Below, piece after piece: positions 21,081-41,790 of a stretch of 64,000 nucleotides of DNA. The stretch's first letter is position 1. The number at the start of each line of letters is the position of its first letter. Both the position numbers and the translations under genes were made by a program. The notes beneath the pieces were generated by a model. The model was not told where the DNA came from and ran no database searches. It worked only from the letters and a program-made list of their open reading frames with translations. The DNA comes from Pseudanabaena sp. BC1403 (GTDB lineage Bacteria; Cyanobacteriota; Cyanobacteriia; Pseudanabaenales; Pseudanabaenaceae), in NCBI RefSeq assembly GCF_002914585.1, contig NZ_PDDM01000011.1, positions 1-64,000 of the forward strand, written 5' to 3'.

Positions 21081-21087
21081 TGGTTAG

Positions 21088-21412: not shown

Positions 21413-21414
21413 GG

Positions 21415-21606: not shown

Positions 21607-21845
21607 GCTGCAATCTCCGCTATTTCATATCGGGCAATCAGGTCGTGAGTAGCGCGAAGCGCCGCCCCTTTAAGTCTGCCGTCGTGTGGAATTGTGTCGA
21701 TAATTCCAGCTCCAAGCGCGATCGCAGTTCGTGCAGCCTCGCGAATGTCATCCCATCGCTTAAAGTCTTGTGGGTCAAGCTCTTCGGAGAGTTTGCGCCC
21801 TGCTTCTTTGAGTCGGCGATAGTGAAAGTCGAAGTGCGTTGTCAT
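21603..21845 (-). CDS. Small helical early protein (element B)
   Basis: 80 residues, helical, with AARTAIALGAGIIDTIPHDG in the middle. Linked by ATGA overlaps on both sides, so part of a run of four coupled genes. No recognisable family. Confidence 0.5.
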   Translation of the reverse strand: MTTHFDFHYRRLKEAGRKLSEELDPQDFKRWDDIREAARTAIALGAGIIDTIPHDGRLKGAALRATHDLIARYEIAEIAA

Positions 21846-22078
21846 TGGCTGGCTTCCTCCAAGCGGTTTATGGATTGTTCAAATCGGACTAAGATTGACA
21901 GCCTTTCTGCGTTACTACGCTTCATAGCAAAACTTGCTCCAGCGACATACGCGCACGAAACAGCAAATTTTGTGTCTTCTGAATAAAAGCTAGTAGACAT
22001 ATTTGCTGCGAGCCATGCCTCGAAGGACGGTTTTAAATCCGACGGAAAGTGGCTCTCGTAAAATTGTTTGAAATTCAA
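21842..22078 (-). CDS. Small early protein with TTG start (element B)
   Basis: About 78 residues. The best start is a TTG at 22078 that overlaps the preceding stop (TTGA) and gives MNFKQFYESHFP; a longer reading into the previous gene is less likely. Central AVSCAYVAGASFAMKR may be an amphipathic helix. Function unknown. Confidence 0.5.
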   Translation of the reverse strand: MNFKQFYESHFPSDLKPSFEAWLAANMSTSFYSEDTKFAVSCAYVAGASFAMKRSNAERLSILVRFEQSINRLEEASQ

Positions 22079-22341
22079 TTTGCAGCCTCCATCAACTTGA
22101 TTTCGATGCGATCGCAAAGTCCACGAATCAATGCAATTTTCTCTGTGTCTGAAAGACCGTCTGGGTCTATGGGGCTAGCTTCCATAATTGCTGGCACATC
22201 ATCGTTGTCGATATAGTGCTTGGTGTTTAGTGCGGTGCTCATGTTGTTGAGAGTGTCAACAAGTTCATGCAATCGCAGGTTGTCGATCGCAATGTCGGTA
22301 GACGGATCTAAACTCAATCCGTAGTAGCCAAGTGGTTGCAT
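22075..22341 (-). CDS. Small early protein 2 (element B)
   Basis: 88 residues, MQPLGYYGLSLD at the N-terminus and EKIALIRGLCDRI near the C-terminus, the counterpart of the 95-residue protein at 12080-12367. The conserved ends suggest a compact helical domain. Unknown function. Confidence 0.6.
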   Translation of the reverse strand: MQPLGYYGLSLDPSTDIAIDNLRLHELVDTLNNMSTALNTKHYIDNDDVPAIMEASPIDPDGLSDTEKIALIRGLCDRIEIKLMEAAN

Positions 22342-22344
22342 GGT

Positions 22345-22581
22345 TTATCCCTCAATGGTGGTTTGCTCGATTTTTACGAAATAGCCCCGTTGGCACAGGG
22401 TGCGGACTTCTAGGGAAAGTTGTCTGCGAAATTTACGCTCGTGTGGTTCGGTGAAATGTCCTGATGCTTTTAGATCGCTGGTGGCGAAGGTATATCTCCC
22501 TCGCGAAACCCAGATTGTCGCGGTAGGATGGTATCTGCCGATCGCATCGTCTAACTGTCGTTCGGTTGCTTGCATGGTCAT
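22345..22581 (-). CDS. Small early protein 1 (element B)
   Basis: 78 residues; PTATIWVSRGRYTFATSD and the C-terminal helix to GYFVKIEQ match the 63-residue protein at 11882-12073. The N-terminus is about 15 residues longer. First gene after the early terminator, as in element A. Confidence 0.6.
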   Translation of the reverse strand: MTMQATERQLDDAIGRYHPTATIWVSRGRYTFATSDLKASGHFTEPHERKFRRQLSLEVRTLCQRGYFVKIEQTTIEG

Positions 22582-22603
22582 TACTCCTAGTGGTTTTGCA
22601 AAA

Positions 22604-22659
22604 AAAAAAGAAGAGATTGATTGCCTAGCTGTGAACTAGTAATCGATCTCTTCTTTTTT
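22604..22659 (-). terminator. Terminator overlapping the end of the ribbon-helix-helix gene (element B)
   Basis: Arms AAAAAAGAAGAGAT (22604-22617) and ATCTCTTCTTTTTT (22646-22659), identical to the element A stem. On the minus strand it ends in a long T tract. The right arm on the plus strand lies within the KKEEI codons. Confidence 0.75.
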
Positions 22660-22821
22660 GGTGAGTTTTTCAATGAAATGGCGATTGTCCAAGCAATGCA
22701 AGAGCGCTGCCTCAACAATTTCGCTAAGGTTCTTGCGATGCTTAACACCGAAAATACGAACCTTTTCGTCAACGTTTGGATCTAAATGCACGGTCAGCCG
22801 TGACTTGTCAGTTGCAAGCAT
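22636..22821 (-). CDS. Ribbon-helix-helix DNA-binding protein (element B)
   Basis: 61 residues from the ATG at 22821, chosen because MLATDKSRLTVHLDP then lines up with element A; an ATG three codons earlier is possible. Strand SRLTVHLD, helices DEKVRIFGVKH and NLSEIVEAALLHCLD. Ends TKKEEIDY. As the first gene after the operator it probably regulates early transcription or replication. Confidence 0.75.
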   Translation of the reverse strand: MLATDKSRLTVHLDPNVDEKVRIFGVKHRKNLSEIVEAALLHCLDNRHFIEKLTKKEEIDY

Positions 22822-22941
22822 ATTTACCATGTGATAACTACGCTTGCTAGTGTACTAAGTGATAAGTGTACTTGTCAACTAGTAAACAGACTGGCCAAGT
22901 ATACTTGTATACTTATTGACAAGTTGACTTATCAACTAGTT
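22822..22941. promoter_or_regulatory. Divergent control region of element B
   Basis: On the minus strand TTGACA and TACACT, 18 bases apart (about 22848-22877), form a promoter for the ribbon-helix-helix gene. The region is packed with related inverted and direct repeats: CTTGTCAACTAGT, CTTATCAACTAGTT, AAGTATACTT and GTGTACT. TTGACA also occurs on the plus strand at 22916. Several operators of the XRE repressor are likely. Confidence 0.65.
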
Positions 22942-23295
22942 ATGAACTTAACAAGCAGACAAAAACTATCGAAATTGCTTCTAGACCTGCGTGGTACGAA
23001 GAGTCGCAGGGCTTTTGCCCGTGAGATTGGAGTTACAGCCACGGCTGTTATTGCATGGGAAAATACTGACAGCGAACCAGATATGCAGCATTTGACAACA
23101 ATCGCAAAGCTTGCTGGCTATACTCTCGACGAATTAAGAGTGTTTCTGGGAGACTCCGAACAGAAAAAGACTAGCAAGATACCATTTGCTCGGATGCTCA
23201 CAGAGACATCGCAGCTAAGCATCAAAGAAGCGGCTGAACTCTACAGGGCTGTTGGTGATAGATTGGTTGCGATCGCGGAGAGTGCAGGAAGGTAG
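22942..23295 (+). CDS. XRE-family repressor (element B)
   Basis: 117 residues from the ATG at 22942; an open frame upstream is just operator DNA. The helix-turn-helix is at residues about 18-45 (SRRAFAREIGVTATAVIAWE). The last 12 residues DRLVAIAESAGR are the same as in element A. Acts opposite the ribbon-helix-helix gene and is followed at once by a gene starting at GTG two bases after its stop. Confidence 0.8.
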   Translation: MNLTSRQKLSKLLLDLRGTKSRRAFAREIGVTATAVIAWENTDSEPDMQHLTTIAKLAGYTLDELRVFLGDSEQKKTSKIPFARMLTETSQLSIKEAAELYRAVGDRLVAIAESAGR

Positions 23296-23296
23296 A

Positions 23297-23713
23297 GTGG
23301 AAATATTTTTTGCGTGTCTGATGATAGTAGCTCTGTATTTTTGGTTGAAACCGAAGCCACAGAAAAAAGTCCCAACACTCGAAGATATCAGGCGCAAATA
23401 TCCACCACGTAAATCGCAAGAACAAATCAAGGCTGAAGGACTGAAAGAACGAAAAGCTGCATATGATCGCGAATTGGCTAACAGGATGAAGGCTAAGGGC
23501 ATGACTCGCGCCACACATCACAGCCCAACTCAATCAGTCCCTAAGCGCGATATATCGATCTCCAATTTCAGGATGTTGATCAAAATGGTTAATGGGCAAG
23601 AGGATGTTGCTCGCAGGTTGATCGAGGGGAATTTGAAGTTATTTCCAGACAAATCACCTGACTGGGCTTGCGAGAAAGCTATTTTAGATATTGAGCGAGA
23701 CAGACGAATTTAG
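23297..23713 (+). CDS. Membrane-anchored partner of the repressor (element B)
   Basis: About 138 residues from the GTG at 23297. One N-terminal helix (FFACLMIVALYFWLK), a charged basic linker and a C-terminal domain (FRMLIKMVNGQEDVARRL and ACEKAILDIERDRRI) matching element A, where three helices precede it. The common soluble domain, changeable membrane part and fixed position behind the repressor suggest a signal into the switch or an exclusion function. This is inference. Confidence 0.55.
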   Translation: MEIFFACLMIVALYFWLKPKPQKKVPTLEDIRRKYPPRKSQEQIKAEGLKERKAAYDRELANRMKAKGMTRATHHSPTQSVPKRDISISNFRMLIKMVNGQEDVARRLIEGNLKLFPDKSPDWACEKAILDIERDRRI

Positions 23714-24028
23714 CCACAAAAAAAGCCCCTCTAGGATCGTCTCCAAGGTGCTTGAAATTAGCTCTAGGTATGTTTCCACCTTCATATTTTGGGTAAAAGC
23801 AAAGGCGATCGCAGATTTTGCGATGTGAAATAAATCTACTGATGATCTTTGGTTTTCCTGTAGATCCACACCAACAATAAAGGCGATCGCAGATTTTGCG
23901 ATCGCCCTTATTGTTTGATATTTGTGATGGGTTTTTACCCATGTCTCCCTTGTGAGGGCAATCCTAGCTATCTAGACGACACAAAAAAGTAATTACTTAG
24001 CTCTAATTATAGCGGCGCATCGCGCCGC
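23714..24028. other. Convergent intergenic region of element B with HIP1 hairpins
   Basis: About 315 bases. Two copies of AAAGGCGATCGCAGATTTTG lie at about 23800 and 23880, the second completing a hairpin GGCGATCGCA/TGCGATCGCC. An open frame on the minus strand here only reads these repeats (ICDRL appears twice) and is not a gene. A short repeat GCGGCGCATCGCGCCGCC lies near 24011. Confidence 0.5.
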
Positions 24029-24334
24029 CTAAGTTCTGTGATCACGAATCAAAGCCTTTAAATCATCAAAAGCCTTGTCCACATAGGCAAATCTCAACTC
24101 AATTGTTGACTTAATGGTTTCTTGAGTGACCTTGGATAGGTTGAGTTTCTGTTCAAGCGACTCATTATTTGCCATATTGACCTCATGCATGGAGGTTAGC
24201 TTAGTGTTAATCTCCCTGTCTTCAGCCTCAAGCGAATACAGTCGCCCGTTGAACTCCCCCAACTTTTCCTCAATCATGTCTCGCTCAGATCTAGCGATCA
24301 TCCTGCGAATTGCACCAAATATTTTGTCAATCAT
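24029..24334 (-). CDS. Coiled-coil protein (element B)
   Basis: 101 residues from the ATG at 24334 (a TTG four codons earlier is weaker). Nearly all helical with heptads (YSLEAEDREINTKLTSMHEV, LEQKLNLSKVTQETI). Last gene of the late block, like the membrane coiled-coil protein of element A, but without a membrane helix. Unknown function. Confidence 0.55.
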   Translation of the reverse strand: MIDKIFGAIRRMIARSERDMIEEKLGEFNGRLYSLEAEDREINTKLTSMHEVNMANNESLEQKLNLSKVTQETIKSTIELRFAYVDKAFDDLKALIRDHRT

Positions 24335-24358
24335 AATGACCCGCAAAACTAAAAAAAA

Positions 24359-24733
24359 CTATTCCACATATTCATGAATGAGTATGTCTATGTCGGTCAA
24401 CCAAGTAGGGAAGCTCAACTTCAATTTATAGCCGTCTGGAAACTGGAGCATGTCGAATATCTCAGGCTTACCGAGATCTACAGAGGTCTCTTTGATTACA
24501 TCCTCAAAACCTAGCTGAGTAGCAATAGTCTGATAAATCTTAGCGCCATATCTCCAGTTAGACTGCTTGCTAGGGGAATCCAAACTTATTCGCACATATT
24601 GTTTGGTGAACAGGTAGGGAATGATTAGCGGTGGGATAGGAGCTTTCCCGAAATATCCAACAGTCTCAGCCACAAAACCCTGATGATACCTCTGCAACCA
24701 ACTCCCTTGTAAGAAATCTGGTAATACTGCCAT
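24359..24733 (-). CDS. Late protein of element B, unknown
   Basis: 124 residues starting MAVLPDFLQGSWLQRYHQGF. Aromatic and mostly beta, no signal peptide and no catalytic motif. It follows the hairpin after the paralogous pair. Takes the place of the 127-residue protein of element A. Minor structural protein is a guess from place. Confidence 0.45.
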   Translation of the reverse strand: MAVLPDFLQGSWLQRYHQGFVAETVGYFGKAPIPPLIIPYLFTKQYVRISLDSPSKQSNWRYGAKIYQTIATQLGFEDVIKETSVDLGKPEIFDMLQFPDGYKLKLSFPTWLTDIDILIHEYVE

Positions 24734-24755
24734 GTAGGTTTCCTTCTATAAATAG

Positions 24756-24802
24756 TTAGCCCTGTATTTGGGACTCTAACGTCCGACTAAATACAGGGCT
24801 AA
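24756..24802 (-). terminator. Hairpin after the putative coat genes (element B)
   Basis: Perfect 14-bp arms TTAGCCCTGTATTT (24756-24769) and AAATACAGGGCTAA (24789-24802). The loop has AGAGTCCC on the coding strand, as in element A, although the stems differ completely. Conserved loop with changed stem suggests selection on the loop. Confidence 0.6.
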
Positions 24803-24805
24803 ATA

Positions 24806-25192
24806 CTAGCGAACCTTGCCAATTTTCCAAGACTTTGCGGTCGCACCAATGCCAAGCGTTACAGTCTTGTCGATCAAACCCGCGGCTGCTGTGTCCATTT
24901 TTGACATCTCGCACAGGATCTCGATATTACGAGTTTCGGTTGCAGTGTCGTAAGTTGCGCCCTGATAGCAGGTCAGCTTTAGTAATGAGGCTCGATTGCT
25001 ATTCGCAGCTTGCTTTACAGTTACTCCGACGATTCCTACCGTACTAGCTGGAGCCACATCGGTAAGACCAACCTGAGACAAGATATCCGTATCGTAAATA
25101 TCAGGATCGAGACCAAGTTCCATAGCAGCCTCGGTAGCTGCGCCGCTTGTGCCCATCCCAATATAGAAAAGTTTCTTTTTGCTAGTAGCCAT
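24806..25192 (-). CDS. Putative structural protein, paralogue 2 (element B)
   Basis: 128 residues. C-terminal half ILCEMSKMDTAAAGLIDKTV then LGIGATAKSWKIGKVR repeats the pattern of the gene upstream (CDRDKADTASGELIGKTV, GIGTGVSYEITRV). Cys, Asp-Thr-Ala, the Leu-Ile-x-Lys-Thr-Val strand and Gly-Ile-Gly are kept. A tandem duplication followed by a strong hairpin is the expected pattern for abundant particle proteins. Not a recognised family. Confidence 0.5.
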   Translation of the reverse strand: MATSKKKLFYIGMGTSGAATEAAMELGLDPDIYDTDILSQVGLTDVAPASTVGIVGVTVKQAANSNRASLLKLTCYQGATYDTATETRNIEILCEMSKMDTAAAGLIDKTVTLGIGATAKSWKIGKVR

Positions 25193-25249
25193 TATTTTTT
25201 AATTCCCAAAATTAGACAGATGATAGAAAGATAGGATCGATTTAAAGGT

Positions 25250-25603
25250 CTATCCAGAAACGACGCGAGTAATCTCGTAGGAGACCCCAGTCCCGATGCC
25301 AACCTTCACGGTTTTGCCGATCAGTTCACCAGAGGCAGTATCAGCTTTGTCGCGATCGCAGACAAAATAGACGGTTCTCTTCTTCTTGCCTGTAGGATCT
25401 TTACACTTTGCCTTTAGTCTTAAAATAGCTCCAGTCTCCATAGCCGCCTTGATAGAGCGATAGGGATATTTCTGGGAACCTACGGCAGTTGTAGATTGAA
25501 TCCCAAGGATGGTTCGAAGCGTAGATGTGTACTTAACGTCATCAAGGTTTAACCCGATAACCTGATCCGGTCCACTTGGGATGAAAAATTCTTTAATAGC
25601 CAT
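25250..25603 (-). CDS. Putative structural protein, paralogue 1 (element B)
   Basis: 117 residues, MAIKEFFIPSGPDQVIGLNL at the start, basic middle (KCKDPTGKKKRTVYFV), C-terminal pattern shared with the next gene. Spacing of 57 bases to that gene. The pair may correspond to the internally duplicated 168-residue protein of element A. Confidence 0.5.
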   Translation of the reverse strand: MAIKEFFIPSGPDQVIGLNLDDVKYTSTLRTILGIQSTTAVGSQKYPYRSIKAAMETGAILRLKAKCKDPTGKKKRTVYFVCDRDKADTASGELIGKTVKVGIGTGVSYEITRVVSG

Positions 25604-25733
25604 TCAATCAAAATGAACTCGATAGCCATAGACGCTAGCACGGCTGAAACCTATATAGCAAGCGGAAAACAGGGCTAGAGTGTATGCGCCAAACCTTAAG
25701 GTTTCTGCGTTTAGTGTTCATTCAGTGTGCAAA
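25604..25733. other. Short intergenic hairpin region of element B
   Basis: Holds CGCCAAACCTTAAGGTTTCTGCG, whose AAACCTTAAGGTTT core is a perfect 14-base palindrome. It lies between the 266-residue gene and the structural pair and may be a terminator or a processing site. Confidence 0.45.
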
Positions 25734-26534
25734 TTAGTAAACCAGCGTCGAACCTCGAACCAAGAGGATCGGTTTTGAGGGGTAGCACTTATAATCGGCG
25801 TGAGTAAAGTACATGGGTACAGACTGGTTACGGTTCGGCAAATTAACAAGCCTTGATACAACCCGCGTTTTTCTTGGCACAGCCGTAGCACTTGCCGAGC
25901 CTAATTTACTCTCACTTATTTTTAAATCGCGATCATCATACTCATCGCGATCATTCAAAAGTCCCATCACATTTTTGATTAAATTTTCCCCGTCGATTAC
26001 ATCACGACAGCTAACAATAAATTCATAGCCCAAAGCTTTATTTTTGTAAGAAACTTTTCGATAACCAGTCCTAAATTTATAAAGTGGCGTGCCGAATTGC
26101 TGCCTGATATCTGTAGCGATCGCCCTAAGCGCCGCCGTCGATGTTGGTATTTTTGATTCACGAACTCTCAAACTAATTTGCATAGTTCTCGCTCTTTCCC
26201 TAGTTTCCGTACTCGCGCTAGCTGTGTACTCTTGACGAAAATAGAGCGTAATTTGAGGGAGATATCCGACGGCAATATTGTAAGTAGAGACAGGCACAGA
26301 GAAGTATAAATCATTCACTCCATTTGCATCTTCGCAATACTGCTTAAAGAAGTTCATCGCTTGGATACAGTAAACCAAAGAGTCGTTATCTTCCAATATC
26401 AAAAGCCGCTTAGTGCTTGCCCTTGGAGTATCCGATAAATCACCATCAGGAATATCTTTGAAGTATTCTCGAACCTGTCGATTATGCATCAAAATAATCG
26501 CTCTTTGTAGTCCTTCCGTTCTCTCTTTACTCAT
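25734..26534 (-). CDS. 266-residue late protein of element B, unknown
   Basis: Mixed alpha/beta with start MSKERTEGLQRAIILMHNRQ. Contains no P-loop, no HxxR-Tyr integrase pattern and no nuclease motif that I can see. Rich in Arg and Tyr (YGLPQITLYFRQEY-like strands), with a C-terminal Arg/Lys cluster. The largest candidate for a shell or connector protein in the element, by elimination only. Element A lacks it. Confidence 0.45.
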   Translation of the reverse strand: MSKERTEGLQRAIILMHNRQVREYFKDIPDGDLSDTPRASTKRLLILEDNDSLVYCIQAMNFFKQYCEDANGVNDLYFSVPVSTYNIAVGYLPQITLYFRQEYTASASTETRERARTMQISLRVRESKIPTSTAALRAIATDIRQQFGTPLYKFRTGYRKVSYKNKALGYEFIVSCRDVIDGENLIKNVMGLLNDRDEYDDRDLKISESKLGSASATAVPRKTRVVSRLVNLPNRNQSVPMYFTHADYKCYPSKPILLVRGSTLVY

Positions 26535-26536
26535 AA

Positions 26537-28867
26537 TTATGGAGCCTCATCTTCCGCAGGGGCAGGGGCTAAAGTGATAGGTGTTATCTCCGTAGGAAGT
26601 TCAGCTTTAAGCGCCGCTCTTGCTTCCGAATCCGCAGTATTAAAGGCAGTCGCCTTATCCTTCAAGTCCTTAGTATCTTCTCTTAATTGTTTGTAGTCTT
26701 CCTTGATCGATACCGCGCTACTAGTGACGGAAGATAGATTGCTTGCGATATTTTCAGCGCCTTCCAAAGTATCATTCAACCTCTCAAATCTATTCACTCT
26801 CCTCGCTCTAATTGTCTCGTCCATTGCAGGATAAGCATTCTCCGAAACCACCCCATCTTCCCTTAGTGCATTAAATCCTTTTGACACATTCTCCATGCCA
26901 TATTCGACAGCACTAGAGATAGGATCTAACATAGATTGAGTGGTATTTAGAACCTGTGCAGCGCTGTTAAGAATCATTGATGCTTTCTGCCAATTGAGGG
27001 TAAGTTCAACATATCTTTCAGCACCTAAAACTTGAATCAAGAAGCCCCTAAAATTGCTTCCAATAACATCAGTAAAACCAACTTGAGAACCTTCGGAGTT
27101 AGTAAATCTCAGTCCCGTAAGACCGATGACGTTATCCACCACGCTACCCAATGTCTCGCCAATATCACGAGTCAGCAAGGCGGCATTATGGATATTCGTA
27201 ACCAAATTCATTACCCCTAAAGTGCGATCGATGACAGTATTATTCAAGATTTGCAGTACTTTCCCAATCCGATTTTGTAGGAATTCCCAGATAGTAGCTA
27301 ACAAATTTGCGATCGCAGATATTGCACCTGCATTTGCAACGGTCTGATCCTTTACAGCATCAACATTACCCATGATGGGATCTTTAATCCTATCTTCCAT
27401 CCCTTTAGTACAGCTAGGGCTTTGCATCATTTCGCAACTGCCAGCCTTAGCAGCATCTTTTAGACTGTCTGCTGATGTCTGTTGATTTACCTGATTCAAT
27501 AGATTTTGAGTAGTATTACCCGCAACTAAAATAGAACCTAAAATCAAGGCTGTAGCAGGATCTACCGATGGAATGTTAAATACACCTGTAGTGCTACCTG
27601 TACCTACTGTGCTCGATGGACTAGCACTGTTTATGGGTACAGCATTAGGTGTTGGATAGGGCTTCCTTCTCTTTTCGTCATCATCTTCAGGTTTCTTTTT
27701 ACCAGTAGGATCTCGTGATGGTGGAATATTAGGGCTAGTTTTAGGTGTAGAACTAGGTATAGGTGTGACATTTAATTTCGGTGGTGGTTCAGGGAAAGCT
27801 AGCCTGTCAGCATTACTCCCCCTTAAATCAACATTAGGCAACCAAGGCAAAGAGTTAGTAGGTTGAGGTAAAGGAATAGGACTAGCAGCACCATTTACAT
27901 AGGGTGGCGCACCATTATCAATTACATCAACTGGTTCTATTCGATCTAATTGCCAATTGTTATAAAAATTTCTATTTAAGTTTGCATAGGCTACTCCATC
28001 CCTATGAGTAACTGCAATACCTGATGAATTTGGCTCACTAGGTATTGGATCTAAGGGTTCAGTAGAAATAGGCAAGGGGAATACGCCTACCTGTAGAGGT
28101 GCGCTACGTTCTCCTGTTGCAATCGTGACAAAGGTAACAAAAACAGCAGCAGTGGCGACAGTTACATTTTTTTTGCCTGCGTTTTCACCTCTGGTTAGTG
28201 GCGTGAAAGGATTACGCCGCCTTTCTTCTAAAGCTTTCTGATATCTCTCTTCAGACTTAGCCAGATTAGCCTTAGCTTTCTCCAACCCTTTACCTGCACT
28301 AATAGCTTTATCTAAAGCATCTAAAGCACTGTTGGCTAGAGCGGCAGATGTGGTTAATCCGCCTACCACAGCAGCAGCAGCAGGGTTACCAGTAGCGATC
28401 GCTGTAGTGGTTGCAGCAGCCAAACCAGCTCCTAAAGCTTCGCCATAACCCGCACCTAAATCACCACCTACAGCTCTACCAGCTTTCTCACTAATTACTG
28501 AACCTGCTGCGCCTGCAACTATACCTATAGCACTAGTAGTCATACTGGAGGTAGGTTTTGCTGTAATAGGACTAGTTGTAGTAAGGGCAGAAGTAGGCGC
28601 TACAGGGTTTGTAGGGTAAGGATTAGGGGTGTTTTTAGGAGCATTACCAAGTGATATACCTAGATCTCTAGCTTTAGTTTCTAGGTATACAGGGTTTTTT
28701 AAGCCATTGGTCGCATTAAAATCTAACTGCCTTTGAGCAGTTTCAACAGCTAAGGCGTTACCACGAGCATTACCTTCTGCTCTAATTTGCCTTTGGCTCT
28801 CATTGAAAGCTTCCTGAGCATTCCATTGCTCAAGCCATAAAGGCTGACTGCCTGTAGGGGAACTCAT
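26537..28867 (-). CDS. Large Ala/Gly-rich virion-like protein (element B)
   Basis: 776 residues. Residues about 110-200 are Ala/Gly-rich with glycine-zipper character (IGIVAGAAGSVISEKAGRAV, GEALGAGLAAATTTAIATG), able to enter a membrane. Residues 330-440 are a Pro/Ser linker with an acidic-basic patch (KKKPEDDDEKRRK). From 520 on it is helical with long heptads and coiled coil (DYKQLREDTKDLKDKA). It resembles a phage ejection or tape-measure protein in texture. The element A protein has the same order but little identity. Confidence 0.55.
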   Translation of the reverse strand: MSSPTGSQPLWLEQWNAQEAFNESQRQIRAEGNARGNALAVETAQRQLDFNATNGLKNPVYLETKARDLGISLGNAPKNTPNPYPTNPVAPTSALTTTSPITAKPTSSMTTSAIGIVAGAAGSVISEKAGRAVGGDLGAGYGEALGAGLAAATTTAIATGNPAAAAVVGGLTTSAALANSALDALDKAISAGKGLEKAKANLAKSEERYQKALEERRRNPFTPLTRGENAGKKNVTVATAAVFVTFVTIATGERSAPLQVGVFPLPISTEPLDPIPSEPNSSGIAVTHRDGVAYANLNRNFYNNWQLDRIEPVDVIDNGAPPYVNGAASPIPLPQPTNSLPWLPNVDLRGSNADRLAFPEPPPKLNVTPIPSSTPKTSPNIPPSRDPTGKKKPEDDDEKRRKPYPTPNAVPINSASPSSTVGTGSTTGVFNIPSVDPATALILGSILVAGNTTQNLLNQVNQQTSADSLKDAAKAGSCEMMQSPSCTKGMEDRIKDPIMGNVDAVKDQTVANAGAISAIANLLATIWEFLQNRIGKVLQILNNTVIDRTLGVMNLVTNIHNAALLTRDIGETLGSVVDNVIGLTGLRFTNSEGSQVGFTDVIGSNFRGFLIQVLGAERYVELTLNWQKASMILNSAAQVLNTTQSMLDPISSAVEYGMENVSKGFNALREDGVVSENAYPAMDETIRARRVNRFERLNDTLEGAENIASNLSSVTSSAVSIKEDYKQLREDTKDLKDKATAFNTADSEARAALKAELPTEITPITLAPAPAEDEAP

Positions 28868-28892
28868 AACCCTTACTCCAAATATTTATTAA

Positions 28893-29249
28893 TTAAGCGT
28901 TCCAAGCGACATCATGAGGCTGATTAGGTAACCTCTCAATGGTTTGTTTGTGAAGCTTGCCGCCATTTGGATATGCTGCCCAATTGTTGTTTAAACGAAT
29001 AAACTGTCTTGTTTCCATATAAGCCAATCCTTTAGCATAGGTGATGAAAACTGAACTCATGTTAATTGCAGTAGTATCATCGCTGAACAGAACCTTCTCT
29101 GATGCATTGATATCGTGGTAAGTCTGAGCAAAATAAGCTAATGCTTCACTGTGATTAGTGAGAGCTTGCGTCCCAAATAGGGGGACACTACTGCTATTCT
29201 CTGGAACAGAAACAGGTGTAGAGCTAGGAACCCAAACTAAATTAGACAT
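28893..29249 (-). CDS. Small late protein of element B, unknown
   Basis: 118 residues, MSNLVWVPSSTPVSVPENSS start, helical middle (EALAYFAQTYHDINASEK), beta end. Lies between the fibre and the large protein. The small gene next to the fibre in element A (6128) is not clearly related. Confidence 0.5.
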   Translation of the reverse strand: MSNLVWVPSSTPVSVPENSSSVPLFGTQALTNHSEALAYFAQTYHDINASEKVLFSDDTTAINMSSVFITYAKGLAYMETRQFIRLNNNWAAYPNGGKLHKQTIERLPNQPHDVAWNA

Positions 29250-29285
29250 TGATGTTCTCCTTTTAAGAATGAATGAAAGAGAGGT

Positions 29286-30731
29286 TTATATAGCGATTAC
29301 TTCACCGCCTGATGCGGCTTTACCGTAAAGTTCTAGTTCCAGAATCCCAAGAGAGTTAGGGCTAGAGACAGCTAAGAAGAATACATTTGAAGGTGATGTA
29401 TTTGGGGTAAGCGTTTTCGCTTGTTCAGTTCCAGTGCTATTAGTGAAGGTTAGGTCGCCTAGATTTTCACCGCTAGTGTTAGTACCTGCATATACCGTCA
29501 TATCTCTAGTCCAGTAGCCAGAGGCAGATCCAAGGCTATTATTTCCTTGTCCGTTCCATAGGCTTAACGAGTCTAGAATTACTGGTTCAGCAAAAGTGAT
29601 TAAAATACCGCCCGAGGTATTACTAGACAGAAAACCATCAGTAGAAAAAGCGCCTGTAGGTAATTTCACACCGTTGTACATGCATGAAAGCGCCGCCCCA
29701 TAATCGATCGACAAATTTGCACTTGAAGCTGTATAGCTTTTTTTGCTTGATGTGCTTTCGATTGTTTGTGGCGTAAAGTTATTGATGACTCTAGATCTGA
29801 AGCTAGAAACCCATAGATTAGACTGGCAATACCTCAACCTGATTGCAGAGTAGGGTTTAAGCATAATCCCCTTGTCTAAGCCTGCAACGGTGTAGGTATT
29901 GTTGTTTAGAACTTGATGAGATGCATCGCCATGATTGACCTGTAGGCTGAAGTTGCCAGTTGCCAGATCGACTACATCACCAATAGCAGGTGAAGCAGGA
30001 AGAGTAAAAGCCAGGTCTGCAACAGTAGCTAAATAAGACTTGCCTGATTCTAAATCCGTATTTACAGCGACAGGAAGAAAATTAGGGCTAGCCGATCCTG
30101 TCGGTGCGCTTGATTCTAAATCATCCACTCTTGAAGATAGAGATGTTATCTCAGAGAGAGCACTAGATAAACCCGTAATGTCGCCAATCGAGTGACTGTG
30201 AGCAGATGGCGAAAAAGTGTCGGGTTTATCTGCGATCGCTTCCCAAGATGGCGCGGAAATAGTCCCCTCTAAAGCTGTAAGGCGATTACTTTGCTCCAGA
30301 TCTATTCCTATTTGAGCTTCCAGTGCTAACCCAATGCCCTCAACGCTAGATTCAAGCGTTGAGACCTTGCTAGGTAACCCCAAAATCTGATCTGGGATAG
30401 GCGCGGTATTTGATTCAAGAATATTACCTACAGAGGTATAGGCAATATTCAGCGTATAAGAATCACTGAGATAGCTGGTAGGGAAGAAAACCAAGCCATC
30501 GGTTTGAGGGACGGCTAATAGCAAAATATCTTTCCCAGAGTACAGAGCATAGCCCTTACGAGCGCCGCCTGAGTCCTGAAAAAGATATCCGATTATTTGT
30601 TTGCTTTGGGCGTATTCGGGTTTTGTGGTGGCAGTGATTGCGAGCACATTCCCAGTAAACGGCGAAGCGATCGCGATCGCGCCTTCGTTAAACCCGTGAG
30701 TTTGTGAATATAACTGAGTCCAATCAAGCAT
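29286..30731 (-). CDS. Tail-fibre-like receptor-binding protein (element B)
   Basis: About 481 residues from the ATG at 30731 (MLDWTQLYSQTHGF); an in-frame start at 30797 would read through the operator and is unlikely. Contains tail-fibre signatures IADKPDTFSPSAHSHSIGDI and a coiled coil SLSSRVDDLESS. The C-terminal 230 residues match the element A fibre (FTLPASPAIGD, ATGNFS, LKPYSAIRL, FRSRVINNF) and end GKAASGGEVIAI. The conserved C-terminal tail suggests a common attachment or folding element. Surface binding is inferred. Confidence 0.7.
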   Translation of the reverse strand: MLDWTQLYSQTHGFNEGAIAIASPFTGNVLAITATTKPEYAQSKQIIGYLFQDSGGARKGYALYSGKDILLLAVPQTDGLVFFPTSYLSDSYTLNIAYTSVGNILESNTAPIPDQILGLPSKVSTLESSVEGIGLALEAQIGIDLEQSNRLTALEGTISAPSWEAIADKPDTFSPSAHSHSIGDITGLSSALSEITSLSSRVDDLESSAPTGSASPNFLPVAVNTDLESGKSYLATVADLAFTLPASPAIGDVVDLATGNFSLQVNHGDASHQVLNNNTYTVAGLDKGIMLKPYSAIRLRYCQSNLWVSSFRSRVINNFTPQTIESTSSKKSYTASSANLSIDYGAALSCMYNGVKLPTGAFSTDGFLSSNTSGGILITFAEPVILDSLSLWNGQGNNSLGSASGYWTRDMTVYAGTNTSGENLGDLTFTNSTGTEQAKTLTPNTSPSNVFFLAVSSPNSLGILELELYGKAASGGEVIAI

Positions 30732-30780
30732 GAACTGTCCTATTACGAGATTGATAGTCTCATTATAGGACTTATTTAGA
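30732..30780 (-). promoter_or_regulatory. Promoter with operator palindrome (element B)
   Basis: On the minus strand AAATAAGTCCTATAATGAGA followed by CTATCAA and TCTCGTAATAGGAC. TATAAT is the -10. It copies the left half of the element A operator exactly and most of the right half, placed 14 bases upstream of the fibre ATG. No good -35 is seen, so this copy may need an activator or be weaker. Confidence 0.7.
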
Positions 30781-30814
30781 CTGCGAAATGTACCCATTTA
30801 CGCAGCCTGAAAGG

Positions 30815-36262: not shown

Positions 36263-36354
36263 GTCTTGAAAGGTTAAGTTTTAACTGTTGCTTCCTACAG
36301 TAAGCAAAACCTATGATGAAATCTAGATTAACTCTATTTTTTGAGGAAATTTCT

Positions 36355-36693
36355 ATGACTACTATCCGTGAAGTAACTGGCGATCCTAACGAATTTTGGG
36401 CTGAGCTGAGCTGGTCTGATATGACTAGTGCGGAACAAGCTCTTTGGACAAAATTAGGCTGGAGTGAAGAAAGCTGGGACGAGGAAGAAGATTTTCCTGA
36501 ATGGGATGATTTATCCGATGAAGATAAAAAGCTTTGGGGCATCCTTGGCTGGACTCAATCTAGCTGGGAGGGAGAAGATGACATCCCTGAATCCGCAGAA
36601 AAACTCTGGGAAGACCTCACCAGTGAAGAGCAATCAGCAGCAACTCAGCTTGGTTATACCCAAGAGAAATGGGACGACGACGAGGAAGTCTAA
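36355..36693 (+). CDS. Acidic Trp-repeat protein
   Basis: 112 residues from the ATG at 36355 (an in-frame ATG at 36313 would add 14). Three repeats of the form LTSAEQALWTKLGWSEESWD, with the pattern W-x-x-LGW/YT-x-x-SW/KW-D and very acidic ends. The repeats look helical, with exposed Trp. The protein is not exported. Its neighbours are the iron cluster and tRNA-Leu, so the context tells little. Unknown function. Confidence 0.55.
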   Translation: MTTIREVTGDPNEFWAELSWSDMTSAEQALWTKLGWSEESWDEEEDFPEWDDLSDEDKKLWGILGWTQSSWEGEDDIPESAEKLWEDLTSEEQSAATQLGYTQEKWDDDEEV

Positions 36694-36947: not shown

Positions 36948-37030
36948 GGGGGTATGGCGGAATGGTAGACGCTACGGACTTAAAATCCGTTGATCGTAAG
37001 GTCGTAAGGGTTCAAGTCCCTTTACCCCCA
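36948..37030 (+). tRNA. trnL-UAA: tRNA-Leu (anticodon UAA), no intron
   Basis: Acceptor GGGGGTA pairs with TACCCCC, discriminator A at 37030. The anticodon stem ACGGA/TCCGT encloses CTTAAAA, giving TAA. A long variable arm (TGATCGTAAGGTCG) and the T arm GGGTTCAAGTCCC are typical of tRNA-Leu. Many cyanobacteria carry a group I intron in this gene, within the anticodon; here the loop is uninterrupted. No CCA is encoded. Confidence 0.9.
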
Positions 37031-37032: not shown

Positions 37033-37075
37033 AAAAAAAGAGACTTCGATGCTTTGCATCGAAGTCTCTTTTTTT
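37033..37075. terminator. 20-bp terminator after tRNA-Leu
   Basis: Arms 37033-37052 and 37056-37075 around TTT, T-rich on the right; serves the tRNA and possibly also the convergent ParB-like gene. Confidence 0.8.
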
Positions 37076-37084
37076 TACTTACAC

Positions 37085-38011
37085 TTACCATGCATCAATT
37101 ATCTTCTGCATAGTTGTTTCCTTAATACCAGACACTGTACTTATTACATCTTCAATAGATTGAAATTTTTGATCATGGTGCTGCAATCTTTGCTCATGAA
37201 TAGGTTTAGCAAGGCTGCGCTTACTTGGTTTCAATTGTGATAGCTTACGTTCTAAATCAGCAAAATTCATCGTATTCAAACCATTGAGAACCTGTAAGGC
37301 TTTAGGATCATCATTATGAATAGATATATCTTTAGCTTTTGATTTAGAACTCGTTGTTTTAGTCTTAGTGGTAGCAGCTTTCGTGGTTTTAGATTTAGGG
37401 GTTTTCTCAGGAGATGGTTCTGGTGCTGAAGCGATCGGTTGTGTTGGCGAAAGAACTTGACTAATAGGAACAAAAGATAATGACTGTTTAAAATCTAGTA
37501 AATGTGAGTTTAATTGCTGAGTAATTTGATTAGCAAATACTTGCAAACTAGAGTGGAGCCTTTCCTCAACTATGCGATCTATGATGGCTGATAGTTTTTG
37601 CTCTAATCGATTTGCGATCGCATCTTCCATTTGAGCTAAGTCTTGTTGTTCAGCTTTACTAGTCGGGGAAGAAGTGATTTCAGTTGATGAGGATGAATCC
37701 AGCGATCGCAAAAAATTATATTGCTCAAGAATTGTTGACTCTATCTCAGTAGGTACAACATAGGCGCGGATTGCCGTAAATTGATCATCGATTTCCTGAG
37801 CTTTGAGCGCGGCATAATATTCAAAATATCCTTCCAGTATTTCAAATGAAATTGGCGAGACTCTGCGTAACAGAATTGGCTTTACTGTGCCGCCTGCCTG
37901 CAAAAACAAATTAGCAAGCTGCTCAATTTGACTCGATTGAAACTGAGATATCTCTTGTGATACTGGCGATACGATCATGTCAAGATCAATCGAAGAAGTG
38001 AGTAAACTCAT
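37085..38011 (-). CDS. ParB-like partner protein
   Basis: 308 residues. N-terminal part resembles a ParB N domain: QIEQLANLFLQAGGTVKPIL then RRVSPISFEILEGYFEYYAA, where ParB has the GERRxRA box. A long helical and Lys/Thr-rich linker (residues about 135-240) follows, and the C-terminus has a helix-hairpin-helix-like SIEDVISTVSGIKETT. The ParB arginine box is not conserved, so CTP or DNA sliding is uncertain. Starts inside the stop of the ParA-like gene. Confidence 0.55.
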   Translation of the reverse strand: MSLLTSSIDLDMIVSPVSQEISQFQSSQIEQLANLFLQAGGTVKPILLRRVSPISFEILEGYFEYYAALKAQEIDDQFTAIRAYVVPTEIESTILEQYNFLRSLDSSSSTEITSSPTSKAEQQDLAQMEDAIANRLEQKLSAIIDRIVEERLHSSLQVFANQITQQLNSHLLDFKQSLSFVPISQVLSPTQPIASAPEPSPEKTPKSKTTKAATTKTKTTSSKSKAKDISIHNDDPKALQVLNGLNTMNFADLERKLSQLKPSKRSLAKPIHEQRLQHHDQKFQSIEDVISTVSGIKETTMQKIIDAW

Positions 38012-39426
38012 GAGCGTAGTCCTATTTTCTCAAGCACTTCATTGGCTAACTCTTCAAACTCAGCGGCTGACATCGAATCTGGCTTAAAGTCAAAGATCGA
38101 TTTAGGATCGGGGATTTGGCGATCGCCTTCCATCACAAAGTTATCGATGGCGCGGGATAAATCTTCGCGTTGAAAAATTCGGGTTTCTAATACGGAAAAT
38201 CCATATCGCTCTTCGACAATCTTCTCTTGCTTAGGTAAAGTGGCTTTGATATAATTCGCATTTGTCAATATTTTAGAAGGTAAAACTCCCAGAATATTGA
38301 TTGAGGATCGATTGGTAAAACTGCGAAAATCATCAATCTGTTCAACAAAGTTTTTGACATTGCGTAAACCTTCATTGGCAAATGGTTTCAGGTCGGAGGG
38401 AATGATGAGGTAATCACAGGCAATCAGGGCGATTCTTGCATAGAGATTGAGTGAGGGTGGAGTATCGATTAAGACTACATCGTAGTCATTTTTCACAAGC
38501 TCTAACTTTTTAACTAGCTGAAATTTAGAACTTTCTTGGTCAATTAAAGCATTTTCTTGCCAGATCAAATTAATATGTGCAGGAATAACATCTACTTCAG
38601 GATAGGTAAAACTTCCCTTTAACGCGACATCATGAATATAGTTGGATTTAGGATAGAAGATAATATTGTAGACATTACAGTCTTTAAGATTGTCTTCTTC
38701 TTCAGTGTCAAACTTCATTAAACCTGCGGCATAGGTTGTGTTTGCCTGACTATCAAGATCAATAATTAATACTTTAAAACCCTTACGACTAATAGCGGCG
38801 GCAAGATTAATTGTGGTTGTGGTTTTGCCCACACCGCCTTTGTTGTGATAGATGGCGATCGTTTTCATGATTCTTGCTTGTAGAGATTCTAGAAATGGGA
38901 GCGTATTACTCTCAGGAAATGGAAGTTTAATATCAATTGGAACAGGTAGAGCAGTCAAAGGGATAGGTTTATTTATAGATTTATTTGTAGCAAGTCCCGC
39001 TAACTTATCCCAGCCAATAATATCGCTAATTTTCTCAATTTTGTCAGCAATTTCTAAGCCTTCGCATTGGAAGATTAGCTCTATTTGATCGTCAACAAGT
39101 TCATAAATCCGAAAATCTTTTCCGTTAGTTAATACCCCATATATAACTTGCAACTTAGCTAAATATCGCCTCAGCCGTCGCACATGGAAATTGAGATTTT
39201 GTTTGGGATGTTTTGCTTCCATCACCACACAAGGCTTCGGTGATGGGTCGTTAATACTTGGAAAAACTGGGGAAAGCAATGCTAAAAAATCTAAACGAAT
39301 ACCACCCAATGCTACCTCTTGATGCCATTTGCTTGGATCGTAGCCAAGGGCAGGTAAAAGATACTGGACGATTAATTTGCTTTCGACTTCACTTTCATTA
39401 CGACAAAGTTTTGGATTAAAACTCAT
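38008..39426 (-). CDS. Nuclease-fold/ParA ATPase fusion
   Basis: 472 residues from the ATG at 39426, which overlaps the stop of the kinase gene. Residues 1-150 have a type I restriction R-subunit-like PD-(D/E)XK fold: LGYDPSKWHQE, GIRLDFLAL and CVVMEAKHP (Asp, then Glu-x-Lys). From about 190 it is a ParA/Soj ATPase: deviant Walker A KGGVGKTTTTINLA, Walker A' LIIDLDSQANT, Walker B VVLIDTPPS. Active ParA moves DNA or protein; the nuclease part may bind DNA. A fusion of this type is unusual. Confidence 0.75.
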   Translation of the reverse strand: MSFNPKLCRNESEVESKLIVQYLLPALGYDPSKWHQEVALGGIRLDFLALLSPVFPSINDPSPKPCVVMEAKHPKQNLNFHVRRLRRYLAKLQVIYGVLTNGKDFRIYELVDDQIELIFQCEGLEIADKIEKISDIIGWDKLAGLATNKSINKPIPLTALPVPIDIKLPFPESNTLPFLESLQARIMKTIAIYHNKGGVGKTTTTINLAAAISRKGFKVLIIDLDSQANTTYAAGLMKFDTEEEDNLKDCNVYNIIFYPKSNYIHDVALKGSFTYPEVDVIPAHINLIWQENALIDQESSKFQLVKKLELVKNDYDVVLIDTPPSLNLYARIALIACDYLIIPSDLKPFANEGLRNVKNFVEQIDDFRSFTNRSSINILGVLPSKILTNANYIKATLPKQEKIVEERYGFSVLETRIFQREDLSRAIDNFVMEGDRQIPDPKSIFDFKPDSMSAAEFEELANEVLEKIGLRS

Positions 39427-40127
39427 GTCAATGCCATAATCCCCAAAAAAACTAGATTCTTTTCCATCATATCCACTTTTAAGCCCCATTTCATTAAATA
39501 ATCGCTATCGCCTCCAGTAATAATCACTTGGCTCTGAGGAAACTCCGATCGCCAATCATCTATATAAGCTTGTAAGCCCGCGATGAATATATGCGCTATC
39601 CCTGCCTGAATCGCGCTATTTGTATCTGTCGCCCAGCGCTGTGGCAAAGTCTCAGGAATTGGTAGATCTGGCAAAGCCGCTGTATTTTGATGCAAACAGG
39701 CAAACTGCGATCGCAATCCAGCCACGATCGCTCCACCAAATAAATTCTTTTGCGCATCAATTCCAGTGATAGTGATTGCCGTCCCCGCATCAATCACCAA
39801 TACAGGGTAGCCATAGGTTTCTCCCGCGCCATAGGCAGCCAAAGCGCGATCGCATCCCATTGTCGGGTACAAGCCTTGCAATGGCACATCGGCAGTTCTG
39901 ATCATCTGAGTCTGTGGCAAACGATGCCAACTGGTGATCATATCGGGAACGACTGAGGCGATCGCAATGCGTTCAAAATTTCTAGGTGCAAGTTTTGCTT
40001 CCAGCTTTGGTAATTGCTCGTGGGTATAGGCATATTCTTCAAGAATTTGGCGATCGCGATCAAAAACAAATGCCTTAATTCTGGTGTTACCGATCGCGAT
40101 CGCTAGTTGGATTTGGGACTTGCTCAC
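39423..40127 (-). CDS. coaX: Type III pantothenate kinase
   Basis: 234 residues from the GTG at 40127. First step of coenzyme A synthesis. Motifs: GNTRIKAF (P-loop equivalent), GCDRALAAYGA, VLVIDAGTAITIT and a C-terminal VIITGGDSDYL. The first motif in most family members is Asp-x-Gly-Asn-Thr; here Ala replaces the Asp (AIAIGNT). I recall other cyanobacterial enzymes with a changed motif, so it may still work. Coupled to the ParA-like gene by ATGA. Confidence 0.8.
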   Translation of the reverse strand: MSKSQIQLAIAIGNTRIKAFVFDRDRQILEEYAYTHEQLPKLEAKLAPRNFERIAIASVVPDMITSWHRLPQTQMIRTADVPLQGLYPTMGCDRALAAYGAGETYGYPVLVIDAGTAITITGIDAQKNLFGGAIVAGLRSQFACLHQNTAALPDLPIPETLPQRWATDTNSAIQAGIAHIFIAGLQAYIDDWRSEFPQSQVIITGGDSDYLMKWGLKVDMMEKNLVFLGIMALT

Positions 40128-40302
40128 AATATGCTTTTTTTCTAGAAAGATTAAGGCGGCGCATCGCGCCGTAGCTTGAGTTATTGGTTTATTTGCGTAA
40201 GTACTAATATATAAGATTAAAATAAGACGAGCGATCGCGAAATACTCTCGCATTGTCGCCATATTTGCCAATTCATCACGTCTCTTCATAAAATTCCCCA
40301 AA

Positions 40303-41277: not shown

Positions 41278-41790
41278 ACCCCGCCGCGAGCGGACGGGGT
41301 ATCAGACTCAAAAAAGACTCAGTTGCTCATCCCTCTGTGCAACTTGAGATATTCCTTTCCTTGATTCTTTACGTAACTAGCTATCATATCTTCATCTCCC
41401 TGCCTTCCTACCGTACTTGCAAAATATCCATCACTCCAAAACTCTCCTCCCCATAACTTTTGTTTTACTTGAGGACATCTCTTAAAAACTTCCCTTGCTG
41501 TCAGACTCTTTATCATCGTTACTAGTTTGGTCACACTATACGTTGGTACTGACTGCACTAAAAAATGTACATGATCTTTATCCACACCTATTTCTACAAA
41601 TTTAATCTCATATCGTTTCTCTATGTCTAAACACACTTCCCGCTAAATTTCATCGACTTGCTCATCGAATACGGCTTTTCTATACTTTGCTGGAAATACT
41701 AGGTGGTATAGCAATATCGTTACGTTATGACTTTTGTGTATGTACTCACTCATTCTTTTATCTTACGCCGCAGAGCGGCGGGGTATTTAC
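41278..41790 (-). mobile_element. IS200/IS605-like element, degraded
   Basis: Both ends carry subterminal hairpins of the type recognised by Y1 transposases: CCCCGCCGCGAGCGGACGGGG on the left (41278-41298) and GCCGCAGAGCGGCGGGG on the right. No inverted repeats and no target duplication are expected for this family. Only tnpA is present, no tnpB. The element is a remnant because of the stop in tnpA. Confidence 0.7.
41319..41753 (-). pseudogene. tnpA: IS200-type Y1 transposase with an in-frame amber stop
   Basis: The reading from ATG at 41753 (MSEYIHKSHNVTILLYHLVF) continues in one frame but has TAG at codon 37 (41643-41645). Downstream sequence is intact: the HUH motif DKDHVHFLVQ and the tyrosine region GYFASTVGRQGDEDMIASYV. 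A shorter reading from GTG at 41636 would lack the N-terminal strand. Recent inactivation is likely because nothing else is damaged. Confidence 0.8.

What the first reader, a model, noticed from the sequence alone, without database searches (positions are those of the whole stretch)
38008..39426. PD-(D/E)XK-like domain fused to a ParA ATPase, in an operon with a ParB-like protein
The N-terminal fold looks like a type I restriction subunit N domain, followed by a complete ParA. Restriction-like domains in partition proteins are not standard. It could position a cargo, guide DNA cleavage or be a defence system disguised as a partition locus.
Basis: partly seen in the sequence, partly recalled or inferred. 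Interest (0 to 1): 0.6.

Follow-up and report, generated by a model that had tools for sequence, protein, structure and literature searches.

The report
Nuclease-fused ParA with ParB-like partner
Some cyanobacteria carry a DNA-partition motor (ParA) with a restriction-enzyme-type cutting domain built onto its front and a ParB-like gene beside it, and because the cutting site is kept in nearly every relative examined, the pair probably brings a nuclease to DNA rather than only moving DNA.

Summary
Window 38008-39426 (minus strand) encodes a 472-residue protein: a PD-(D/E)XK domain of HsdR-N type (1-145), a disordered linker and a complete ParA (187-472). A ParB-fold protein follows directly (37085-38011); coaX precedes it. 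The pair is a cyanobacterial cassette: at least 58 of 386 sampled genomes hold a one-frame fusion of these subfamilies, and more divergent fusions exist. No full-length copy was seen on plasmids, phages or viral contigs. The partner lacks a ParB-type HTH; general DNA-binding motifs (HhH, Rho_N/SAP-like) stand at its end in part of the family. The nuclease part is sometimes missing while ParA and partner persist. The codon at the ParA junction is a start codon in 120 of 120 subfamily-1 sequences (ATG 118, GTG 2) but in none of 7 more distant fusions; a Shine-Dalgarno match is often present in Nostocales, not in the window. This suggests a nested second product, free ParA. Best reading: a ParA/ParB-type module carrying a leashed, probably active nuclease. 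Whether it serves DNA conflict or chromosome upkeep is open.

The parts
38008..39426 (-). PD-(D/E)XK-ParA fusion gene, 472 aa plus stop
38992..39426 (-). N-terminal PD-(D/E)XK (HsdR-N type) domain, residues 1-145; E11 39394-39396, E15 39382-39384, D46 39289-39291, E70 39217-39219, K72 39211-39213
38869..38991 (-). variable, disordered linker, residues 146-186
   Evidence: pLDDT under 50 at 150-183; 20% mean identity to the window over the 31 relatives with enough aligned letters there
38011..38868 (-). ParA ATPase domain, residues 187-472
38818..38841 (-). deviant Walker A KGGVGKTT, residues 196-203; each residue in 100 of 100 sequences that have the columns
38866..38868 (-). ATG at the ParA junction (M187), candidate internal start of a free ParA; no Shine-Dalgarno match in the window itself
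37085..38011 (-). ParB-like partner, 308 aa: ParB fold (1-106), coiled coil (122-179), disordered 185-227, C-terminal helical HhH-like part (236-307)
39423..40301 (-). coaX (type III pantothenate kinase), upstream gene in the same orientation in the window's Pseudanabaena group; its stop overlaps the fusion start by 4 bases
37040..37077 (.). inverted repeat followed by T runs, terminator-like, after the ParB-like gene
   Evidence: read directly; the terminator scan was not run

Best explanation
A two-gene ParA/ParB-type module that carries a nuclease. ParA dimerises on ATP and binds nucleoid DNA without sequence preference. A PD-(D/E)XK nuclease domain hangs from it on a flexible linker. The partner, a ParB-fold coiled-coil protein without HTH and, in part of the family, with HhH or Rho_N/SAP-type ends, marks or bundles certain DNA and turns over ParA. 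Cycling on and off DNA would thus deliver or hold the nuclease at DNA that the partner recognises by state (structure, ends, condensation) rather than by a parS sequence. In many lineages a start codon at the ParA junction, often with its own ribosome-binding site, probably also makes free ParA, which would set how many nuclease domains a ParA dimer carries. Shown by sequence and model: domains, kept active site, conserved pairing, the constant start codon, loss of the nuclease part in some genomes. Inferred: ParA cycling, DNA cleavage, partner-ParA contact, the second product, and the role, which I lean slightly to place in DNA conflict or removal of wayward DNA rather than bulk chromosome partition.
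For: Active site: among 104 distinct subfamily-1 fusions, where the column is present, E11 97/97, E15 96/97, D46 97/97, E70 99/99, K72 99/99; five of the seven rows with gaps were cut short by my start picking and are intact in the full frames. Second subfamily 14/14 at each; 16/16 in lower-scoring loci chosen by whole-protein match. Ten of 145 N-domain columns hold across both subfamilies, and E11, E15, D46, E70 and K72 are among them. Eight more distant fusions keep the D and E-x-K by eye. The N-domain is as conserved as ParA (mean identity to the window 63% and 59%) while the linker is not. Of 11 plasmid records with a relative of the N-domain, 10 are annotated as restriction enzyme, HsdR-N protein or N-6 DNA methylase. 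Walker A is constant; nearest structures are Soj/ParA, Z 35.5 to 32.3 in the first eight rows. Partner downstream in 108 of 109 and 15 of 16 loci; ParB fold; HHH_6 in 8 and HHH_3 in 1 of 45 members; of 10 subfamily-2 partners, Rho_N in 4 (two over the cut-off), HeH/LEM in 1, HhH in 1. Junction codon: ATG 102 and GTG 2 of 104, ATG 16 of 16, but no Met in 7 distant fusions, so the fold does not demand it. Shine-Dalgarno matches of 4 bases or more in 72 of 104 against a mean of 25 (most 38) in 300 synonymous shuffles. No full-length fusion on plasmids, phages or viral contigs.
Against: No biochemical data; a conserved PD-(D/E)XK site could be kept for binding or regulation, and one fusion (L115) has R at E15. 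Eight of 386 genomes have the subfamily-1 ParA without the N-domain; in three with an intact partner (G111, G123, G213) no N-domain gene was found anywhere, so cutting is not essential to the core. Shine-Dalgarno support for the internal start is absent in the window and most Pseudanabaena and in 12 of 16 further loci; in subfamily 2 it is not above shuffles (8 of 17 against 5.6, most 10), and strong matches (5 bases or more) are rarer than at the gene's own start, 17 against 60 of 104. The canonical ParA-binding motif LG-R/K-GL (passage of PMC12704722) is in 0 of 137 partner frames, so the ParA contact is unproven. General DNA-binding motifs were matched in a minority of partners. In Pseudanabaena the pair follows coaX, not defence genes. 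The Foldseek and VIA lists are filled by ParA, so the N-domain fold was tested only by Pfam, motif and strand order.
Confidence: 0.5

Rival explanations
1. Anti-phage or anti-plasmid defence: ParA and the ParB-like adaptor survey the cell for foreign DNA and the nuclease destroys it.
For: Plasmid relatives of the nuclease domain are mostly annotated restriction enzymes (10 of 11 records). Patchy presence (58 of 386 genomes with a one-frame fusion of subfamilies 1 and 2); alternative alleles, and in other genomes an unrelated nuclease/FtsK cassette, at the same sites; fast-changing partner (25% mean column identity) with different ends.
Against: PADLOC gave only weak ParA-type matches; no methyltransferase motif in the flanks; no plasmid or viral copy seen; coaX neighbourhood in the window's group; versions without the nuclease persist.
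Confidence: 0.35
2. Chromosome or nucleoid housekeeping: a ParAB substitute whose nuclease resolves entangled or broken DNA during segregation of chromosomes.
For: ParA and partner persist without the nuclease. ParB_N matches at E 1e-10 or better occur in 68 of 386 genomes, one of which (G247) is the cassette partner itself; the window genome has one, on a 32-kb contig, with a weak HTH_ParB match, and no canonical parS within 2 mismatches. Often beside another conserved ParA.
Against: Most sampled genomes show no subfamily-1 or -2 match at the limits used; no HTH or known centromere; the quick tree does not track taxonomy closely, although one Pseudanabaena clade is not rejected (p-AU 0.07).
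Confidence: 0.3
3. Binding-only or relict N-domain: it helps ParA hold DNA or a protein and does not cut.
For: Absence of the domain in some genomes with ParA kept.
Against: The catalytic pattern is among the best conserved columns of the domain across two subfamilies; a binding role would not obviously require D46 and E70-x-K72 together (inference).
Confidence: 0.2
4. Positioning of a protein cargo, as in the carboxysome system McdAB.
For: McdA structures are among the ParA matches (Z 29.6).
Against: Soj-type ParAs match better; the partner is ParB-fold; the nuclease domain has no place in it.
Confidence: 0.05

Closest known systems
ParABS (Soj/Spo0J) DNA partition
   Same: Deviant Walker A ParA, adjacent ParB-fold partner on the same strand
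   Different: N-terminal nuclease domain; partner without HTH match, with GERR in 0 of 137 frames (motif recalled); no canonical parS within 2 mismatches
PadC (ParB-like adaptor of Myxococcus)
   Same: ParB fold (6ryk is among the matches)
   Different: Here tied to one ParA gene and, in part of the family, with DNA-binding C-termini; a bactofilin link is not indicated
HsdR N-domain, type I and methylase-linked restriction enzymes
   Same: HSDR_N and HSDR_N_2 Pfam matches in 17 of 17; 30-35% identity to Thermus and Borreliella proteins
   Different: No translocase, methylase or specificity part; ParA instead
ParB-CTPase fold survey (PMC12704722; abstract, section 7 and search passages read)
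   Same: Reports many ParB-fold fusions, including HNH nuclease fusions
   Different: There the nuclease is fused to ParB; the text has no hit for HhH and one for cyanobacter-, about sulfiredoxin. It used curated Pfam cut-offs, which the window's partner fails
McrB-L/McrB-S and Cas10d/Cas11d internal starts (recalled, no call)
   Same: A large protein and its C-terminal part from one gene
   Different: Here inferred from codons only, and for a ParA

Membership tests
ParABS partition system | ParA-type ATPase with deviant Walker A (KGGVGKT) | tested here: met
   K196 to T203 each 100/100; Soj Z 35.5
ParABS partition system | ParB with ParB_N fold beside parA | tested here: met
ParABS partition system | ParB central HTH that binds parS | tested here: not met
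   No HTH family among the 17 families listed for 45 members; the model passes from ParB fold to coiled coil
ParABS partition system | parS sites | tested here: inconclusive
   Canonical 16-mer absent within 2 mismatches in the own genome; another site cannot be excluded
ParABS partition system | ParA-binding motif LG-R/K-GL at the ParB N-terminus | tested here: not met
   0 of 137 partner frames, 119 distinct; motif from PMC12704722
PD-(D/E)XK nuclease superfamily | D...(D/E)xK active site plus helix-1 acid | tested here: met
   one exception at E15 (L115)
PD-(D/E)XK nuclease superfamily | core fold alpha-beta-beta-beta-alpha-beta | tested here: met
   DSSP order H11-26 E34-40 E43-49 E64-71 H78-92 E94-100; the domain was not folded or searched alone
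PD-(D/E)XK nuclease superfamily | metal-dependent cleavage | not testable with these tools
   needs an assay
Type I restriction HsdR | SF2 translocase domain after the nuclease | tested here: not met
   ParA follows instead
Type I restriction HsdR | adjacent HsdM/HsdS | tested here: not met
   No [NDS]PP[YFW] motif in the 566 frames of 250 aa or more in L009-L117; the rest of the flanks was not scanned by family
Known anti-phage systems (PADLOC) | match to a system's signature proteins | tested here: not met
   Only two PDC-M28B models over the ParA P-loop region, 30 and 19 bits; none for the partner
McdAB carboxysome positioning | McdB-type partner | tested here: not met
   The partner is ParB-fold; no McdB model was searched

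The most novel reading that the evidence does not exclude
A nested gene makes two proteins, a nuclease-ParA and a free ParA, that mix in ATP-dependent dimers. A ParB-like adaptor without a centromere-reading domain gathers them on DNA of a certain state, so that ParA works as a guidance system for a DNA-cutting domain, a use of ParA that no listed title or abstract described.
Probability: 0.3. Interest if true: 0.82.

Novelty: new variant of a known kind. Interest (0 to 1): 0.62.

Why it matters
ParA/ParB pairs are thought of as positioning machines for DNA or protein cargo. A family in which the motor itself carries a kept restriction-type active site would link positioning with DNA cutting. 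It offers a clean test: the nuclease can be removed with ParA left whole, and some genomes already lack it. It also bears on how cyanobacteria handle chromosomes or foreign DNA: a strong ParB_N match was found in only 68 of 386 sampled genomes.

Tried and rejected
Restriction-modification locus: unlikely, no methylase motif nearby (control: the looser PP[YFW] is in 24 of 566 frames). Plasmid or phage gene: no full-length fusion in plasmids (the 5000-record limit was reached; one record has a single place covering 80% or more of the query, at 25.6% identity), phages or, by peptide patterns, viral contigs; the partner has no plasmid match. Canonical parS: not found. Split nuclease and ParA genes: dropped as evidence; in L132 and L133 the frame breaks inside the 5' part of ParA, which may be mutation or sequencing error. 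Horizontal transfer of the window's allele: the quick tree scatters Pseudanabaena and Nostoc, but one Pseudanabaena clade is not rejected (p-AU 0.0708). A combined alignment placed some columns wrongly (one N at D46 came from a cut-short row, L035, whose full frame has D); its probability is not used, one search replaces it, and that one ignores relatedness. Fold search of the whole model lists ParA only, which says nothing about the N-domain. PDB sequence search with the N-domain gave only chance-level hits. The SspH likeness of the exonuclease/FtsK protein covers its FtsK part only.

Rows and sampling: one search used peptide patterns, one of which holds the E-x-K motif, and kept the best 80 of 130 relatives, so the named loci lean towards intact sites; the 16 loci were chosen by whole-protein match. 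Searches list matches at E 1e-20 and 1e-30 and score at most 4 candidates per genome, so counts are lower bounds. In one search, seven of 104 rows lack E11/E15/D46 and five lack E70/K72: five rows (L035, L040, L041, L044, L063) were cut short by my script and are intact in full, L023 is cut by the contig end, and L020 has a broken frame. Some loci are the same genome fetched twice (for instance L138 and L146). Of 12 genomes searched for the divergent ParA, 8 were fetched at that site; G002 and G008 had it but were not fetched, G051 and G060 had no match. Of the weaker long-frame matches only ten regions were examined, one of them (G101) for another purpose.
Full report
What is there. The window is part of contig 11 of a 5.5-Mb draft genome; of the 12 full-length relatives at 77-97% identity, 11 are named Pseudanabaena and one is an uncultured cyanobacterium. 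On the minus strand, coaX (39423-40301), the fusion gene (38008-39426) and the ParB-like gene (37085-38011) overlap by 4 bases each. An inverted repeat with T runs follows, next to tRNA-Leu on the other strand (36948-37030). The fusion is single in its genome; the nine other matched stretches cover ParA only.

The N-domain. Pfam places it in HSDR_N/HSDR_N_2 (17 of 17 members). The model shows helix 11-26, strands 34-40, 43-49 and 64-71, helix 78-92, strand 94-100, with E11/E15 in the helix, D46 in the second strand and E70-A-K72 at the end of the third. Among 104 distinct subfamily-1 fusions the residues are E11 97/97, E15 96/97, D46 97/97, E70 99/99, K72 99/99 where the column is present; five of the seven gapped rows are intact in the full frames, one is cut by a contig end and one has a broken frame. 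A second subfamily, 29-34% identical to the window protein, has 14/14 at each. Sixteen further loci picked by whole-protein match have 16/16. Across both subfamilies ten of 145 columns hold: E11, E15, L24, Y29, D46, E70, K72, Y88, G97, N101. This is the pattern of an active site under selection, not of a relict. Of 11 plasmid records with a relative of this domain, 10 are annotated as restriction enzyme, HsdR-N protein or N-6 DNA methylase.

The ParA domain and partner. ParA has the deviant Walker A in 100 of 100 sequences and resembles Soj/ParA best. The partner has a ParB fold, a long coiled coil, a disordered stretch and a C-terminal helical part; HhH families are hit in 8 (HHH_6) and 1 (HHH_3) of 45 members. 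Of 10 second-subfamily partners, 6 show a Rho_N/SAP, HeH/LEM or HhH match, two of these over the curated cut-off. No HTH match was found. So the centromere-reading part of ParB is missing, and where an end domain can be named it is a general nucleic-acid binder that differs between lineages. The partner has neither the LG-R/K-GL motif nor GERR in any of 137 frames, so nucleotide binding and ParA contact cannot be assumed.

Distribution. In 386 genomes drawn from the phylum, I count, with frames checked: 44 with a one-frame subfamily-1 fusion, one cut by a contig end (G080), three with a broken frame (G013, G300, G286), 14 with a one-frame subfamily-2 fusion and one broken (G121). Eight have the subfamily-1 ParA without N-domain (G011, G111, G121, G123, G151, G213, G247, G360). 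A partner was found beside six of these; in G151 it lies in two frames and in G360 none was found. No genome listed has fused copies of both subfamilies. Four of the eight N-less genomes have a subfamily-2 gene (broken in G121), none of the 48 others do; the other four N-less genomes (G111, G123, G213, G360) have no N-domain match at E 0.001. These are counts over related genomes, not independent events. On the quick tree the N-less state needs 9 changes among 12 rows, at least 4 forced by well-supported branches; this includes L132 and L133, whose frames are broken, and two long branches.

More distant fusions. Checking weaker matches showed that 7 of them (G014, G042, G074, G091, G143, G177, G308) are ParAs of 450-496 aa whose front part has a VD[YFIL] and an E-x-K like the PD-(D/E)XK motif, and that G030 has another such form (N-model matches in G308, G091, G042, G030 and G177, E 9e-8 to 6e-5; the other three by eye). 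Partner-model matches stand downstream in 5 of the 7 (E 3e-6 to 2e-4). G042, G074 and G091 carry these besides a subfamily-1 or -2 fusion. So 58 genomes is a lower bound, and a genome can hold more than one nuclease-ParA.

Removal of the nuclease in nature. In Phormidium tenue FACHB-1050 (L024), at the same coaX site, most of the N-domain is missing, while the ParA frame with its ATG and the partner frame are open (ParA 87% identical to the window). In Pseudanabaena SR411 (L020) the frame breaks at the E-x-K motif while ParA is whole. Either may be an assembly error.

A nested start. The codon at the junction with ParA is ATG in 102 and GTG in 2 of 104 subfamily-1 coding sequences, ATG in 16 of 16 more and in 15 of 17 subfamily-2 sequences, although the linker before it is not conserved. 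In the 7 more distant fusions no Met stands there, so the ParA fold does not demand it. In subfamily 1 a Shine-Dalgarno match of 4 or more bases stands in front of it in 72 of 104, against a mean of 25 and a maximum of 38 in 300 synonymous shuffles; thinned to 75% identity, 16 of 27 against 6.1 (max 12). The gene's own start also has 72 of 104, but with more strong matches (60 against 17 of 5 bases or more). In subfamily 2 the count is within the shuffles (8 of 17 against 5.6, max 10). In the window and most Pseudanabaena there is no such match, and of the 16 extra loci only 4 have it. I therefore propose a second product, free ParA, with good support in Nostocales and weak support in the window.

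Genomic setting. The cassette occupies a few recurrent sites: after coaX in the window's Pseudanabaena group, beside a conserved divergent ParA in Nostocales, others in Nostoc and in genomes where a fatty-acid desaturase precedes it. Fusions of the second subfamily stand beside the divergent ParA in G074 (L138/L146) and G289 (L147), and at the desaturase site in G157 (L148). In 8 genomes without a subfamily-1 or -2 gene at the divergent-ParA site, 6 carry three other genes there: a 3'-5' exonuclease/PD-(D/E)XK/FtsK protein, an AAA ATPase and a third protein; one (G101, L180) shows pieces of the first only, and one (G078, L182) none (a further 11 kb of G101 gave no more). In 18 fusion loci, some possibly the same genome twice, parts of that cassette lie nearby (my count). 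This looks like a site that collects DNA-handling modules, which fits defence but also chromosome upkeep.

Partition, defence or both? Against plain partition: no HTH, no known centromere, patchy presence. Against plain defence: PADLOC gave only weak ParA-type matches, no methylase motif, no copy seen on plasmids or viruses, a coaX neighbourhood, and persistence without the nuclease. The parts-level reading, a ParA-type module that carries a probably active nuclease, is better supported than either role.

Literature. PMC12704722 (abstract, section 7 and search passages read) surveys ParB-fold proteins and reports HNH nuclease fusions to ParB; it says that of all domain fusions only ParB-DUF3850 was consistently beside parA, and it used curated cut-offs, which the window's partner fails (19.2 against 26.3 bits). 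Passages of PMC6328274 (McdA) were seen. Searches for ParA with HsdR-N, PD-(D/E)XK or defence terms (listings only) listed no paper on this fusion. Supplementary files were not open to me, and most subscription papers are not held.

Verdict. Function remains inferred.

Noticed in passing
L181, L183-L187; pieces in L180; also near fusions in L039, L051, L070, L077, L132: Three-gene cassette: about 890-aa protein with 3'-5' exonuclease, PDDEXK_1 and FtsK domains (FtsK part like SspH), a roughly 700-aa AAA_16 ATPase and a roughly 290-aa protein without Pfam match, at the Nostocales site beside the divergent ParA. Function unknown.
   Followed up: partly
L214-L221: Divergent ParAs of 450-496 aa with a PD-(D/E)XK-like front and no Met at the junction, in seven genomes, plus another form in G030.
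   Followed up: partly
L130:5777-9004 (minus): In G121 the N-less ParA frame continues without a stop from the end of an SF1 helicase (AAA_11/AAA_12) whose front shows a weak MTES_1575/DUF559 nuclease match; a stop separates the two helicase halves.
   Followed up: partly
window 14279-30797: Two primase/helicase-type genes (14279-17254, 17975-20479) and a weakly tail-like gene (29286-30797), suggesting a prophage or other mobile island.
   Followed up: no
L137 (G000 contig 41): A separate ParA plus ParB pair (ParB_N 55 bits, weak HTH_ParB) on a 32-kb contig, perhaps a plasmid.
   Followed up: partly
window 36313-36693: Acidic, tryptophan-rich 126-aa frame with repeated W-acidic stretches and no Pfam family above cut-off.
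   Followed up: no
window 41319-41636 (minus): 105-aa frame that looks like a short IS200-type transposase (recalled resemblance, not searched).
   Followed up: no
L067; G019 contig 9: An N-less paralogous ParA stands beside the fused gene.
   Followed up: no
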